A stretch of 64,000 nucleotides of DNA from Clostridia bacterium (lineage in GTDB: Bacteria; Bacillota; Clostridia; Oscillospirales; Acutalibacteraceae). The notes under the pieces are model-generated. The model was not told where the DNA came from. It ran no database searches and worked only from the letters and a program-made list of their open reading frames with translations. The stretch is taken from the NCBI GenBank assembly GCA_017618135.1, contig JAFZUV010000011.1:62001-126000 (forward strand), given 5' to 3'. Shown here one piece after another: positions 30,583 through 58,370 of this stretch. Made by a program: the position numbers and the translations under genes. Within the stretch, counting starts at the first letter, position 1. The number at the start of each line of letters is the position of its first letter.

Positions 30583-30675
30583 GGAGATGTCGCCTAGTCC
30601 GGTCGAGGGCGCACGATTGGAAATCGTGTAACTGCTACAAACAGTTCGAGGGTTCGAATCCCTCCATCTCCGCCA
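30583..30675 (+). tRNA. tRNA-Ser (GGA)
   Basis: Acceptor GGAGATG / CATCTCC, anticodon GGA between CACGA and TCGTG, a long class II variable arm, and encoded CCA. Confidence 0.96.
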
Positions 30676-30900
30676 GAAAAAGTCCGACGCGTGAGCGCCG
30701 GACTTTTTCAACTAAATCCGTCCTGCGGACGGGTGAAACCCATCTTCAATGGGTGAAATCGCTTCGCGGTGAAACTCGACTTTGTCGGGTTAAGAGGACG
30801 GATTTAATTTCACCGAACACAAAGTGTTCGATTTCACCTGAGGGCAAAGCCCGAAGATTTCACCGTGCCAAAAGGCACGATTTCACTTTTGTACTACTTC
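30674..30900 (+). repeat. Mosaic hairpin array, copy A (next to tRNA-Ser)
   Basis: Seven to eight short hairpins are strung together. After a terminator-like GTCCG/CGGAC stem (30681-30704) come hairpins separated by GGTGAAA in the left half and TTTCACC in the right half. Examples are CCCATcttcaATGGG, GAACACaaaGTGTTC, GGGCaaaGCCC and GTGCCaaaaGGCAC. An outer stem AAATCCGTCC / GGACGGATTT (30714-30723 with 30796-30805) can enclose the left hairpins. A homologous copy B lies at 55962-56158 with compensatory stem changes and one hairpin fewer. Any reading frame through it is considered fortuitous. Confidence 0.8.
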
Positions 30901-30902
30901 AT

Positions 30903-31700
30903 TTTTTATCCATTGCGAGGCGGCTGTATATTATATCGCACAGCCCGTGGGCGGTAGCCGAGGCAACGCTGAGCGGCGATAACGAACTCGCCCGCCAATG
31001 TGATATAAAAATAAACGCCTGCCTTAAAAAGTATAAAGAAATATCCGATGTAACCGGTATACCTATGGACTATAAACGCCTTGCAAGCGTGCAGGTGAAA
31101 ACAGCGGCAAAATCAGCATTAAAAAATACACACAAAGCGCTTACATTCAATCCAGAAGCAGATTTTTCTGTTAAACTAAATTCTTTAAGCGCAATTGCCA
31201 ATGATGGGATATCAAAAGCGGCGAGAAAAGTGGCGGAGTTGGGTGGTACTACTAAAACAGAACACTTAAGCGTTGTAAATCTTAGCACAGGGAAAGAGGA
31301 ATATTATGAAATAGGGGATTACGGAAGCGTGGGTGGCGACAAGTTTTGGAAATTTATATCAGATAATTCAGATAAGGAACTTGCCTTTATTCACAACCAT
31401 AATACAGATGGTTTTTTGTCCGAGACTGATATGTGGACTCTTTTATCAAATAAATGCATTAAAGTAATGGGTGCTGTTAGAATAGATGGCGTAAAATACT
31501 TTGCTGAAAAAACGAAAGAATTGCCGGGCGTTTATTATTATGACAAACTGTTTGAAAATGAATTAAAAGGCTTGAACAACGAGGTAAAAAACGGTATAAT
31601 AACAATGGCTGAAAGAACACATAAGAGAGAAGAAATCATTGTAGATTTATTGTTGAAAAGGTATACGAAAGGACTTGTTGAAATTGACGGAAGGAAATGA
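30903..31700 (+). pseudogene. Truncated phage minor head (MuF-like) protein with C-terminal toxin-like domain
   Basis: About 265 residues remain, with no credible start; the frame merely continues upstream through the hairpin array. The first part (AVAEATLSGDNELARQCDIK, then KYKEISDVTGIPMDYKR) resembles the C-terminal part of phage minor capsid proteins. The C-terminal domain contains ELAFIHNHNTDGFLSETD, similar to a JAB/MPN-type metal motif (HxH...S..D). MuF-fused toxins are known in Firmicute prophages. Missing capsid portion and lack of neighbouring phage genes mark a relic. Domain activity is inference. Confidence 0.6.
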
Positions 31701-55450: not shown

Positions 55451-55831
55451 CTACGCGTATATTAGTTTATTCAATACAATCTCTTCGGCGCGGCCCCTGA
55501 TGGAGTTCATACGTCGCACCCATTCCATCTGGTCGGTGGCTTTGAGTTCTTCGCTAATACCTTCGGCTTGTTTCATCTGGTCCACAAGTTGAGAAAAGAT
55601 TTCCTCCGCCTGACGGTCAATATCCTCGATATGTTCTTTCAGTTTCCCCGAAAGCATAAGCCCCGAATATGTAACTCTCTTATTGTTACGCAGATAATCG
55701 TGATACAACATCCCGAATCTGCCGACCTTTGGTGCCTCCGGTGCTTCAAGGCAGGGATAATAGTAGTCGCCCACCAATTCATATTTCAGCCCGGTCTTTT
55801 CGTCAATAATATACTTTTCTAATTCTTTCAT
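55451..55831 (-). CDS. tnpV: TnpV transposon-encoded protein
   Basis: A 126-residue protein with the TnpV signature: KYIIDEKTGLKYELVGDYYY, PCLEAPE and YHDYLRNNKRVTYSGLMLSG, then a coiled coil. Function is not known; it is a marker of Tn4451-type elements. The ATG at 55831 follows GGAGG. It marks the right side of the transposon. Confidence 0.88.
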   Translation of the reverse strand: MKELEKYIIDEKTGLKYELVGDYYYPCLEAPEAPKVGRFGMLYHDYLRNNKRVTYSGLMLSGKLKEHIEDIDRQAEEIFSQLVDQMKQAEGISEELKATDQMEWVRRMNSIRGRAEEIVLNKLIYA

Positions 55832-55937
55832 AATCTGAAACCTCCAAAATTTCTTTGTTTTTGTTGTTTCAGACAAGTTGAATGCTTTTTCAGTCGGTTT
55901 CAGAATGTGTATCTCTGCCGGATTTCATAATAAAAAT

Positions 55938-55961: not shown

Positions 55962-56158
55962 CCAGAAAAATCCATGCTTCGGCGTGGATTTTTCAATTGA
56001 ATCCGTACTTCGGACGGGTGAAATCGCTTCGCGGTGAAATCCGACTTCATCGGGTTTAGGGGCGGATTTGATTTCACCGAACACGGAGTGTTCGATTTCA
56101 CCAGAGGACGCAGTCCGAAGATTTCACCGTGCCGAAAGGCACAATTTCACTTTTAGGC
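55962..56158 (+). repeat. Mosaic hairpin array, copy B (upstream of tRNA-Thr)
   Basis: Homologous along its length to copy A at 30674-30900. Hairpins include ATCCA/TGGAT (where A has GTCCG/CGGAC), CGCTTCGCG, GAACACggaGTGTTC, GGACgcaGTCC (A has GGGC/GCCC) and GTGCCgaaaGGCAC, spaced by GGTGAAA then TTTCACC. The CCCAT/ATGGG unit of copy A is absent. The stretch 56159-56290 downstream is non-coding, with a CGAGAGCCTCG hairpin. Confidence 0.8.
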
Positions 56159-56250
56159 TATTTCGTCTGTTAATCACAGTCGAGAGCCTCGACGCGCAAC
56201 TTACACGGTTGCGGCTTTCATCTTTTTCAGTTTGTACCCGCGTGTCTTTA

Positions 56251-56275
56251 ACTTGCGTTATAAACACTCCGACCA
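56251..56275 (+). repeat. Direct repeat flanking hairpin array B
   Basis: 24 of 25 bases match 55940-55964, with A for G at position 12. Confidence 0.75.
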
Positions 56276-56491: not shown

Positions 56492-58370
56492 AATTGCAAT
56501 GACCTGCCGGGCAAAGCAAAGCTTTATAGTGAAATAAACGAGGTTGAGCATAATAAATTTAATGCATTTGCATATTATATTGCCAATGTAAAATACGATG
56601 AAGATTTTTATAAAATTCTTGTAAATGTGGGCAAAGCAAAAAACGACTCTACCTATCATTTATATGATATCACACAAAAGTTAAGAGATAAAGCCCACCG
56701 AATTAACGATGTGGAACGGCTCTCGAAGAGTATCGGTCTGGAAACTGTATCTCCTGCTGACACTATACCCACTTCGAAAGAAAAAAGCAACAGTATTCCA
56801 CCTATTTATAAAGATGCTATCCAAAAAAAAAGAAGGAATTGCTGAATTTCTCGCTGATCTAAAAGAGATCCACGAGGAGTACGCCCAAAGCGTTGTTAGC
56901 AATCCTTCCGGTAATAGTATACTCGAAACCTCTCTTTCTGCCTTAGAAGAAATCGCACACAAGGATAAAAACCTTTTTCACCGTATTATTGAAGCCGTGA
57001 AGCGGTTTATAAGCAACATAAAGGGGAATAAAACCACAAGAAAGCTTGAAGCCGACCTTGAAAGACTTGAGGCTAAGCTTCAGAAAGTATATGAAAACGC
57101 AGAAATTCCTGTTGACATCATAAATAAAAATGTAGTAAAATATTCCTTGCAAAACGAATATCGTACAAACGCTATGATATGGGCAAATGCCGCCGATAGA
57201 AAAGCCGGAGATTGCAAGCTTCTAAATCGTAATGGGAAAGATTTTGCTTTAATTGAAGCGGACGGTGAGGGCGGTTACACAGAATTTATAACCGGAAAAT
57301 ACAGCGAGGTGAAATCGGAATATGATGAGTACATTTCAGAGCAGACGGATAAGCTTGATGAAGTTGTTGAAGATTTTAGGTCTGGACAAAGACAGTATTA
57401 TGGGAATAGCCGCAATGATGAAAACGGAAGAAGAAATGCTGGAAATATTAGACCGATTAGAGGAAAAACAATTCAAAACAACGCCGCAGGAAACAATGAA
57501 TATTTGCGGTCAAGTGATAAAGGCTCATATACAGAATTAAATTATCAAACTGAAGCATCCGAAGAGGGTGCTTTTTCTATGCAAAAAAACATTACCGAAT
57601 CAGAGTCCTTTGAAAAATGGTTTGGTGACAGCAAGGCAGTAAATAAAGACGGTACACCTAAAAAGCTTTACCACAGAACCAATGCCGACTTTACTGTATT
57701 TGATACCGAAAGAAGCGGAAGCAACCAGGGCAAGACTAAAGGTGACGGAATATATCTTTCAAGCAGTAAAGATGAGTTCTCTTATGCCGGCAATAAGGTT
57801 ATGGAGCTTTATGTAAGTGTTAAAAGCCCGTTTGAAATGGAATTATCGGAAGAAGAAGCGAACCAAATTTATGATAAATATTTCAAACCTTATCACGAGG
57901 ATAAATATAATACATACCGACCGCATGTAATATCCTCGCTTACAAACCCGGTTAAGGTGTTTGATTATTTATCAGAAGCGGCGGAAAAGAACAATACAAA
58001 AACAAGCACTATTTTGTCCGAGCTTGGTTATGACGGTGTACATAGCGGCAGTGAATGGGTAGCATTTAACCCGGAACAGGTCAAATCTGCCGACCCGGTT
58101 ACTTATGACGATAACGGTAATGTTATACCGCTGTCAGAGAGGTTTAATGCGGAGAATGAGGATATAAGATACTCTCTCAAAGGCGACAGGTTAGAGGAGC
58201 TACGGTACCGACCGGAGATGTTTGCAAAACGGCTTATAAAGAAGTTTAGTCTTATAGGCGTTGATGTAGATGAGCTGGCAGGGAAGCTCCGCGAGTTGGT
58301 TGTTAAGCACAATAAGGGTGGAAAGGACTTTGAAATTATGAAAATGCCGACAAAGATAATAGATAAGTAA
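56492..58370 (+). pseudogene. Frameshifted phage polyvalent protein with ADP-ribosyltransferase domain
   Basis: Frame 1 runs 56492-56845 without a start codon (LYSEINEVEHNKFNAFAYYI onward). The homologous continuation (EGIAEFLADLKEIHEEYAQS) lies in another frame; removing one A from the nine-A run at 56823-56831 would join them. The C-terminal domain (about 57590-58170) has FEKWFGDSKAVNKDG, LYHRTNADF, GDGIYLSS, VKSPFEM and YDGVHSGSEWVAFNPEQVKS. This is the pattern of the ART-PolyVal family in large phage and conjugative-element proteins. Start and N-terminal domains are missing, so it is a relic; residual translation of the ART part from an internal start (e.g. 56817 or later) is possible. 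Confidence 0.75.

What the first reader, a model, noticed from the sequence alone, without database searches (positions are those of the whole stretch)
30674..30900. Mosaic hairpin array with covarying stems, present twice in the window beside tRNA genes
Copies at 30674-30900 and 55962-56158 align along their length as strings of short hairpins joined by GGTGAAA (left half) and TTTCACC (right half). Stems differ by paired changes: GTCCG/CGGAC versus ATCCA/TGGAT, and GGGC/GCCC versus GGAC/GTCC. Loops vary freely and one entire hairpin unit (CCCAT/ATGGG) is present only in copy A. This is seen directly. Paired changes argue for selection on structure (RNA or single-stranded DNA), and unit gain or loss argues for modular growth. 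I do not recognise it as a named family. A mobile structured RNA or a hairpin-transposing element is inference.
Basis: partly seen in the sequence, partly recalled or inferred. Interest (0 to 1): 0.72.

Follow-up and report, generated by a model that had tools for sequence, protein, structure and literature searches.

The report
Hairpin arrays linked to S23 genes
A repeated string of small hairpins behind tRNA genes of gut bacteria, part of it already listed as the unexplained "Gut-1 RNA", looks like one half of a spreading element whose other half is a little-understood protein gene (S23), and both go with a seven-letter repeat that is also seen beside S23 genes of distant bacteria.

Summary
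Two related two-armed hairpin arrays (30709-30886, 55994-56150) carry inverted 7-nt linkers, GTGAAAT then ATTTCAC. Copy A's left arm is Rfam Gut-1. Gut-1 matches occur in 49 of 61 sampled genomes of the genus, up to 35 per genome. Of 85 arrays from named genomes, 48 lie directly behind a tRNA or tmRNA gene in sense orientation and 12 more behind a tRNA 3' tail. Near-identical copies have sharp edges, as a modular inserted element would.

The same architecture with other linkers precedes PF05635 (S23, four-helix-bundle) genes: 18 of 42 unselected genes have at least 3 hairpins per 200 nt upstream. Linker type follows the protein (23 of 27 nearest neighbours; shuffled mean 2.8). Elsewhere S23 genes are mostly flanked by plain 7-nt tandem repeats, some inside 23S rRNA or RNase P RNA, others on cyanobacterial plasmids.

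Best reading: Gut-1 arrays are the cis part, often gene-less, of S23-type elements, the 7-mer being the unit that S23 recognises. Recognition and the way of spreading are inferred. Loop types favour DNA hairpins; a functional RNA, as the Gut-1 authors held, remains a rival.

The parts
30583..30675 (+). tRNA-Ser(GGA), ending in the CCA behind which copy A begins
   Evidence: ARAGORN; sequence
30676..30708 (+). terminator-like hairpin of copy A (GAAAAAGTCC...GGACTTTTT), left module of the element
   Evidence: sequence; left identity edges at CCA or at the T-run in relatives
30709..30806 (+). copy A left arm: Gut-1 (model match 30709-30780), heptads GTGAAAY at 30733, 30753, 30769; closing stem 30714-30723 with 30796-30805
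   Evidence: Rfam; sequence; fold
30807..30886 (+). copy A right arm: heptads ATTTCAC and hairpins, Gut-1-like on the opposite strand
   Evidence: 48.4 bits on the minus strand; sequence
30887..30917 (+). copy A right flank, running into what looks like the broken start (TTTTTTATCCATTGCGA) of another array type
   Evidence: by eye, compared with L010
55940..55964 (+). CCA-ending fragment in front of copy B (ACTTGCGTTATGAACACTCCGACCA), repeated at 56251-56275
55965..55993 (+). terminator-like hairpin of copy B
   Evidence: sequence
55994..56150 (+). copy B two-armed array, one hairpin unit shorter than copy A
   Evidence: alignment; Gut-1 model 45.3 and 43.2 bits
56151..56178 (+). copy B tail (TTTTAGGCTATTTCGTCTGTTAATCACA), the same as the right end of S23-bearing stretches L329 and L277

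Best explanation
The array is the cis-acting half of an S23-type element: a modular, dispersed element of gut Clostridia that sits behind the CCA end of tRNA or tmRNA genes and brings its own terminator hairpin. Its body is two inverted arms of 7-nt heptads (GTGAAAT / ATTTCAC) with free-to-vary hairpins between them. Complete elements carry, behind a promoter, an S23 four-helix-bundle gene and often a passenger gene. Copies A and B are gene-less (MITE-like) relatives. The heptad is taken to be the unit that the matching S23 protein recognises, the hairpins acting as DNA (or RNA) spacers that expose the heptads. Shown: anatomy, repetition, tRNA context, S23 linkage, agreement of linker type and protein. 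Inferred: that S23 binds the heptads, that the array works as single-stranded or extruded DNA, and that S23 helps the element to spread with host enzymes.
For: Gut-1 matches in 49 of 61 genus genomes, up to 35 per genome. 48 of 85 arrays directly behind a complete tRNA/tmRNA in sense orientation; none of the other 37 has an antisense one within 120 nt, and 12 of the 37 follow a 17-nt tRNA tail with at most 1 mismatch. In 186 near-identical pairs the left identity edge lies 30-60 nt before the array (CCA in the cases printed) in 64 and at the terminator's T-run in 112. L181 (tmRNA), L208 (tRNA-Trp), L237 (tRNA-Ser): 96-98% identity over 263-301 bp. A terminator-like hairpin follows the tail in 12 of 19 tail-bearing copies vs 7 of 303 control windows. 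Behind ssrA: 2 of 18 resolved genomes carry it. S23: 18 of 42 unselected genes have at least 3 hairpins/200 nt upstream, random windows 178 of 2000. Linker type agrees with nearest S23 neighbour in 23 of 27, shuffled mean 2.8, maximum 14 in 10000 (tree). Gut-1 matches vs S23 genes per genome: Spearman 0.57, p 2e-6; Y1 0.08, RVT_1 0.11. Copy B's tail = right end of S23-bearing stretches. Period-7 repeats upstream of S23: 19 of 28 phylum loci and 21 of 24 genus loci without hairpin arrays vs 75 of 2170 controls; 13 of 16 plasmid/phage loci. Loops on the ATTTCAC strand: GN(N)A 136, TN(N)C 3, other 126 of 265.
Against: No S23 gene lies next to copy A or B, and few of the Gut-1-type arrays seen have one. 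The agreement of heptad and protein could be mere co-inheritance of neighbours. Linker labels were set by rules written after seeing the sequences; 15 of 50 genes got no label. Target duplication is not general: 19 of 72 vs about 12% in controls have a 6-nt or longer copy of the tRNA end downstream. The occupied/empty comparisons are between species. 27 of 50 S23 genes show no tRNA or tail within 700 nt, and none of 29 phylum-wide S23 loci lies behind a tRNA. 24 of 42 unselected S23 genes lack three hairpins. The Gut-1 authors rate it certainly an RNA. Folding energies favour the same strand with RNA and DNA parameters. No binding, transcription or transposition data.
Confidence: 0.6

Rival explanations
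1. It is a functional RNA, as Rfam files it: transcripts fold into the array, and its place behind tRNAs gives it read-through transcription. S23 genes are neighbours or RNA-binding partners.
For: Gut-1 was found as a structured RNA and rated certainly RNA (passages). The + strand of copy A folds at z -6.2 as RNA with a well-defined closing stem. RNA parameters also favour the ATTTCAC strand of hairpins, 95 to 28. 35 of 60 GNNA loops are GNRA.
Against: A terminator hairpin stands between tRNA and array. Preferred loops flip strand between the arms (left 60:1, right 76:2 on the ATTTCAC strand), so no single transcript has them throughout; 25 of 60 GNNA loops are GNYA, and GNA triloops have no known special stability in RNA (recalled).
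Confidence: 0.22
2. It is a BIME-like DNA element: inverted arms of hairpins behind strongly transcribed genes take up supercoiling or bind a host protein; S23 genes merely share the hot spots.
For: Position behind tRNA/tmRNA genes, opposed arms, DNA-type loops.
Against: Does not explain why linker type follows S23 lineage, the correlation of copy number with S23, or heptads at S23 genes elsewhere.
Confidence: 0.1
3. It has no function: short near-palindromes are perfected by template switching, and repeats spread by recombination at tRNA-linked islands.
For: Stem sequences are free; tRNA-site islands are frequent here; modules are exchanged at terminators.
Against: Loop polarity 136:3 and constant 7-nt linkers while S23 proteins of the same type diverge to 56% identity.
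Confidence: 0.08

Closest known systems
Rfam RF01706 Gut-1 RNA
   Same: Copy A's left arm scores above the cut-off, as does at least one arm in each of the 18 loci given.
   Different: Gut-1 is 77 nt and filed as an sRNA; here it is one arm of a two-armed array of about 160-180 bp with terminator and tail. The 2010 paper (passages read) rates it certainly RNA, human gut only, seen only in environmental sequences; the passages give no function.
S23-encoding intervening sequences (IVS) of 23S rRNA (PF05635, TIGR02436)
   Same: S23 gene with inverted heptad repeats, set at a stable-RNA gene; seen here in 23S rRNA (5) and RNase P RNA (2) among 12 other Bacillota loci scanned. The Coxiella IVS paper (passages read) reports terminal inverted repeats forming a 28-bp stem and an unclear origin.
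   Different: Behind tRNA genes, not inside rRNA; heptads interleaved with hairpins; both arms upstream of the gene; copies A and B have no gene.
Cyanobacterial STRR heptanucleotide repeats
   Same: 7-bp repeats of unknown function that can form hairpins (passage read), titled as present in RNase P RNA genes (reference title only); 7-nt-period repeats stand upstream of S23 genes on cyanobacterial plasmids.
   Different: Contiguous heptads without hairpins between. Whether STRRs in general belong to S23 was not tested.
Class C group II introns
   Same: Insert at transcription terminators (review passages read).
   Different: No intron or RT seen; RVT_1 absent from copy-rich genomes G009, G019, G034, G055, present in G060.
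REP/BIME with Y1 (RAYT) transposase
   Same: Intergenic palindromes in opposed orientation (recalled).
   Different: Stem sequences not conserved; no correlation with Y1 transposases.

Membership tests
Rfam Gut-1 (RF01706) | covariance-model score of at least 50 bits | tested here: met
   Copy A left arm 60.6 bits. Copy B 45.3: not met for that copy
Rfam Gut-1 (RF01706) | expressed as a small RNA | not testable with these tools
   No transcript data
S23 / 23S rRNA IVS element | carries an S23 (PF05635) ORF | tested here: not met
   None beside copies A or B: the ten neighbouring ORFs scanned have no PF05635, and the four PF05635 hits of G000 lie on contigs other than C2. Met in related arrays such as L176 and L277
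S23 / 23S rRNA IVS element | inverted heptad repeats | tested here: met
   GTGAAAT left, ATTTCAC right in both copies; contiguous inverted heptads at IVS loci
S23 / 23S rRNA IVS element | inserted in a 23S rRNA helix | tested here: not met
   Copies lie between tRNA or CCA fragment and the next gene
MITE (gene-less derivative of a gene-carrying element) | ends shared with a gene-carrying relative | tested here: met
   Copy B tail = right end of L329 and L277; same-flavour array stands before S23 in L176-type stretches
MITE (gene-less derivative of a gene-carrying element) | target site duplication | tested here: inconclusive
   19 of 72 vs about 12% in controls have at least 6 nt of the tRNA end again downstream
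REP/BIME | conserved REP stem and partner Y1 transposase | tested here: not met
   Stems vary; Y1 count uncorrelated
STRR | contiguous 7-bp tandem repeats | tested here: not met
   Heptads of copies A and B are separated by hairpins

The most novel reading that the evidence does not exclude
S23 (four-helix-bundle, Avd-like) proteins and 7-nt repeats form one widespread two-part mobile system. Each S23 lineage recognises its own heptad, and elements settle in or behind stable-RNA genes (23S rRNA, RNase P RNA, tRNA/tmRNA 3' ends). Gut-1 'RNA' of gut Clostridia, and perhaps the heptanucleotide STRRs of cyanobacteria, are gene-less footprints of it.
Probability: 0.5. Interest if true: 0.93.

Novelty: new variant of a known kind. 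Interest (0 to 1): 0.82.

Why it matters
Two old puzzles become testable together: what Gut-1 RNA is, and what the S23 proteins of 23S rRNA intervening sequences do. A heptad that changes in step with the protein predicts specific, swappable binding, which a gel shift can check. If the heptads upstream of cyanobacterial S23 genes are the known STRRs, a repeat class of unknown function gains a candidate partner protein. It would also show that covariation alone does not prove a functional RNA.

Tried and rejected
Wobble pairs as a strand test: the first count looked decisive but came from fixed linker letters at the stem foot. Only a weak inner signal remains on the ATTTCAC strand (my tally: G-T 18, A-C 8). 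Not used.

Target duplication: a copy of at least 6 nt of the tRNA end lies downstream in 19 of 72 cases, about 12% in controls: a modest excess, carried in part by a few clear cases (L081, L162), no general rule.

Reverse transcriptase or Y1 transposase as driver: RVT_1 in 16 of 61 and Y1_Tnp in 42 of 61 genomes, neither correlated with Gut-1 copy number. Other transposase or integrase families were not tested.

Viral carriage: no exact hit of one GTGAAAT-type pattern in the viral contigs; two unverified 'Bacteriophage sp.' records encode S23, with hairpin arrays upstream by eye.

tRNA 3' fragments in front of arrays: they look like ends displaced by other, T-loop or anticodon-loop integrating islands (attribution recalled), so they are not counted as part of this element.

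Empty site of copy A: orthologues of the gene upstream lack tRNA-Ser(GGA) there; only a between-species pair was informative (L123 without, L124 with array).

S23 behind tRNAs outside the genus: none of 29 phylum-wide loci. tRNA placing is a feature of this lineage.

Literature: searches for Gut-1, for palindromic or repetitive elements near tRNA genes and for S23/IVS, heptanucleotide repeats or Avd listed no paper that by its title or abstract start links heptads or Gut-1 to S23. Only open-licence papers are held.

Full report
What is there. Copy A follows tRNA-Ser(GGA) at once: CCA at 30673-30675, a terminator-like hairpin to 30708, then the array 30709-30886. Copy B has the same order (hairpin 55965-55993, array 55994-56150) behind a short CCA-ending fragment. 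Both have two arms. In the left arm hairpins are joined by GTGAAAT, in the right arm by ATTTCAC, so the arms are inverted copies in design, and a stem (AAATCCGTCC with GGACGGATTT in copy A) encloses the left arm. The alignment confirms the paired changes and the extra unit of copy A. Folding z-scores: -6.2 (A, RNA), -6.1 (A, DNA), -3.4 (B, RNA).

Name. Rfam's Gut-1 covers copy A's left arm at 60.6 bits. The right arm matches the same model on the opposite strand at 48.4 bits, copy B's arms at 45.3 and 43.2, all below the 50-bit cut-off. Gut-1 as filed is thus one arm of a larger two-armed element. The source paper (passages only) rates it 'certainly' an RNA, from human gut only; that counts against my DNA reading and is kept as a rival.

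Abundance and place. Gut-1 matches occur in 49 of 61 genomes sampled from the genus, over the cut-off in 41, up to 35 per genome. They hold 85 arrays of the pattern, which itself demands TTTT before CAAC. 48 of 85 lie within 90 nt behind a complete tRNA or tmRNA on the same strand; none of the other 37 has one on the other strand within 120 nt, and 12 of the 37 follow a 17-nt tRNA 3' tail with at most one mismatch. Many isotypes and tmRNA are used. The next ORF of at least 90 aa is codirectional in 71, convergent in 34, absent within 900 nt in 2 of 107. One pattern had no hit in the viral contigs.

Edges. In 186 pairs of near-identical arrays whose identity ends inside the sequence held, the left edge lies 30-60 nt before the array in 64, at the terminator's T-run in 112, elsewhere in 10; the right edge is within about 10 nt of the array's end in 62 and 60-80 nt further in 65 (binned). 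In the pairs printed the farther left edge is at CCA or a few bases before it. L181 (tmRNA), L208 (tRNA-Trp) and L237 (tRNA-Ser) are 96-98% identical over 263-301 bp and share at most a few tRNA-end letters upstream of CCA. A terminator-like hairpin begins within 14 nt of the tail's end in 12 of 19 tail-bearing copies, against 7 of 303 control windows; of the 12, L156's is the terminator of the next copy and L165's is doubtful. I read this as insertion between CCA and the resident terminator. At ssrA, resolved the tmRNA end in 18 of 30 loci: 2 carry a Gut-1-type array (G019, G014), 1 an array with another linker (G058), 15 neither in the stretch printed. A between-species pair shows the same two-tRNA locus without (L123) and with (L124) an array. 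No general target duplication was found.

Which strand? Of distinct inter-linker segments, 108 of 143 (left) and 157 of 240 (right) are perfectly self-complementary, re-paired halves 16% and 11%. Of the 265, loops on the ATTTCAC strand are GNA or GNNA in 136, TNC or TNNC in 3, other in 126; by arm 60:1 (left) and 76:2 (right). Of 125 triloops 76 are GAA, GCA, GTA or GGA; of 60 GNNA the third base is R in 35, Y in 25. That d(C-GNA-G) and d(C-GNNA-G) hairpins are unusually stable in DNA is recalled; one search gave listings only. Of 79 neighbouring terminators 19 have GN(N)A, 4 TN(N)C and 56 other loops, UUCG (9) and GAAA (9) being commonest. Because the polarity flips between arms, no single transcript has the preferred loops throughout. 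I take this as favouring DNA hairpins, not as proof: energies favour the same strand with RNA (95 to 28) and DNA parameters (96 to 23).

The partner gene. At least 9 distinct arrays are followed by a promoter-like stretch and an S23 gene (PF05635; TIGR02436 'four helix bundle protein'). Starting from the gene, 42 S23 genes of the genus not chosen for an array were examined: 18 have at least three hairpins per 200 nt upstream, 12 at least five; random windows from loci rich in arrays, 178 of 2000 with at least three. Linkers differ: RTGAAAT, RTGATGT, ATGATAT, GTKATAT, RTGAAGY, GCTAAAT and AT-rich ones, inverted between arms where I read them. Linker type goes with the protein: nearest neighbours share it in 23 of 27 labelled unselected genes, shuffled mean 2.8, maximum 14 in 10000; with selected genes 31 of 35, mean 5.2, maximum 15. 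On a quick tree (17 of 47 inner branches weakly supported) 9 changes account for the 9 labels. Within the RTGAAAT type, proteins diverge to 56% identity. 21 of 50 have a tRNA and 2 a tRNA tail within 700 nt upstream (17 of the 42 unselected, my count), random positions 50 of 2400. Per genome, Gut-1 matches correlate with S23 genes (Spearman 0.57, p 2e-6; presence by Fisher p 0.008), not with Y1_Tnp (0.08) or RVT_1 (0.11); genome quality may contribute.

Whole elements. L277 reads: tRNA 3' part and CCA, terminator, ATGATGT-type array, promoter, S23, another ORF, tail, terminator. The tails of L277 and of L329 (own genome) are that of copy B, which makes copy B look like a gene-less relative. 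In 7 of 16 S23 genes examined the next ORF starts 4 nt before the S23 ORF ends; passengers differ: VanZ-like, ASCH, GNAT, a sub-threshold transglutaminase-like hit, others unknown. Two own-genome loci, L331 and L332, share 448 bp at 95% from CCA into S23 and then part, so array and protein N-terminus can travel together.

Beyond the genus. Of 12 other-Bacillota loci scanned, S23 lies in 23S rRNA in 5 and in RNase P RNA in 2, with inverted heptad tracts at both ends where I read them. Period 7 is the single best period at a score of at least 18 of 28 upstream of S23 in 19 of 28 phylum loci (another period in 2) and in 21 of 24 genus loci without hairpin arrays (another in 0); control windows: 75 of 2170 with period 7, 148 with another. 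None of 29 phylum loci lies behind a tRNA. In plasmids and phage records S23 was found in 35 and 2 records; of 16 fetched, 13 show period 7 upstream; the two faecal phage records carry hairpin arrays by eye, the last is degenerate. So the feature common to most S23 genes is a 7-nt repeat; the Gut-1 arrays are heptads with hairpins put between them. Cyanobacterial STRRs are described as 7-bp repeats of unknown function that can form hairpins (passage) and are titled as lying in RNase P RNA genes (reference title).

How it most likely works. Homologues of S23 with solved structures are 2rld and 2gsc; the 2gsc paper's title, seen in a reference list, speaks of five four-helix bundles in one assembly, and a 2023 paper (passages) likens PF05635 to Avd of diversity-generating retroelements; NCBIfam gives only a sub-threshold Avd hit. 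I propose that S23 binds its own heptads, exposed between hairpins in single-stranded or extruded DNA, and that bound elements are copied by host enzymes into places behind stable-RNA 3' ends; the element's terminator keeps the tRNA gene's ending intact. Binding, strand state and copying are inference.

What it is not. Not a REP/BIME (variable stems, no Y1 link) and not an intron (no RT link). Copies A and B fail two defining features of a 23S rRNA IVS (no ORF, not in 23S), so they are filed as related to that family, not members.

Noticed in passing
L153, L157, L165, L166, L175, L184, L193, L213, L220, L227: Inserts of about 150-310 bp between a tRNA and a second copy of its 3' tail, holding a terminator, in most an inverted piece of the T-arm and often a GTCCGGTGGAC-like hairpin; in L220 twice in tandem. 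Looks like a separate family of tiny tRNA-site elements.
   Followed up: partly
L310, L311, L316, L320 behind tmRNA: Another short element that starts right behind the tmRNA CCA and ends in TGCTCCACCA, repeating the tmRNA end; tandem in L311.
   Followed up: no
window 56179-56275; L288: Element of about 100 bp, GTCGAGAGCCTCGACGCGC...GTTATRAACACTCCGACCA, abutting copy B; a similar one in L288.
   Followed up: partly
L364, L366: S23 gene with heptad repeats inside the RNase P RNA gene (model positions 1-367 spread over 775 nt).
   Followed up: partly
L389, L391, L392, L394 (plasmids): S23 genes between or beside genes of defence systems: hsdS/hsdR, drmD/pglX, cas2/cas1, and before cas1. A 2023 paper (passage) also calls PF05635 the most common Pfam in its aggregated neighbourhoods.
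   Followed up: no
L331 and L332 (G000:C20, G000:C17): Two own-genome S23 genes alike in array and N-terminal part but different towards the C-terminus, as if the front module were swapped.
   Followed up: partly
window 55451-55876 and 56709-58370: TnpV-like ORF upstream and ART-PolyVal ORF downstream of copy B.
   Followed up: no
L273, L297, L343, L176, L191, L192, L200: Unrelated passenger ORFs that begin 4 nt before the end of the S23 ORF, like coupled gene cassettes.
   Followed up: partly
window 30887-30917: Right behind copy A the start of another array type (TTTTTTATCCATTGCGA) seems broken off by a G+C-rich stretch.
   Followed up: no
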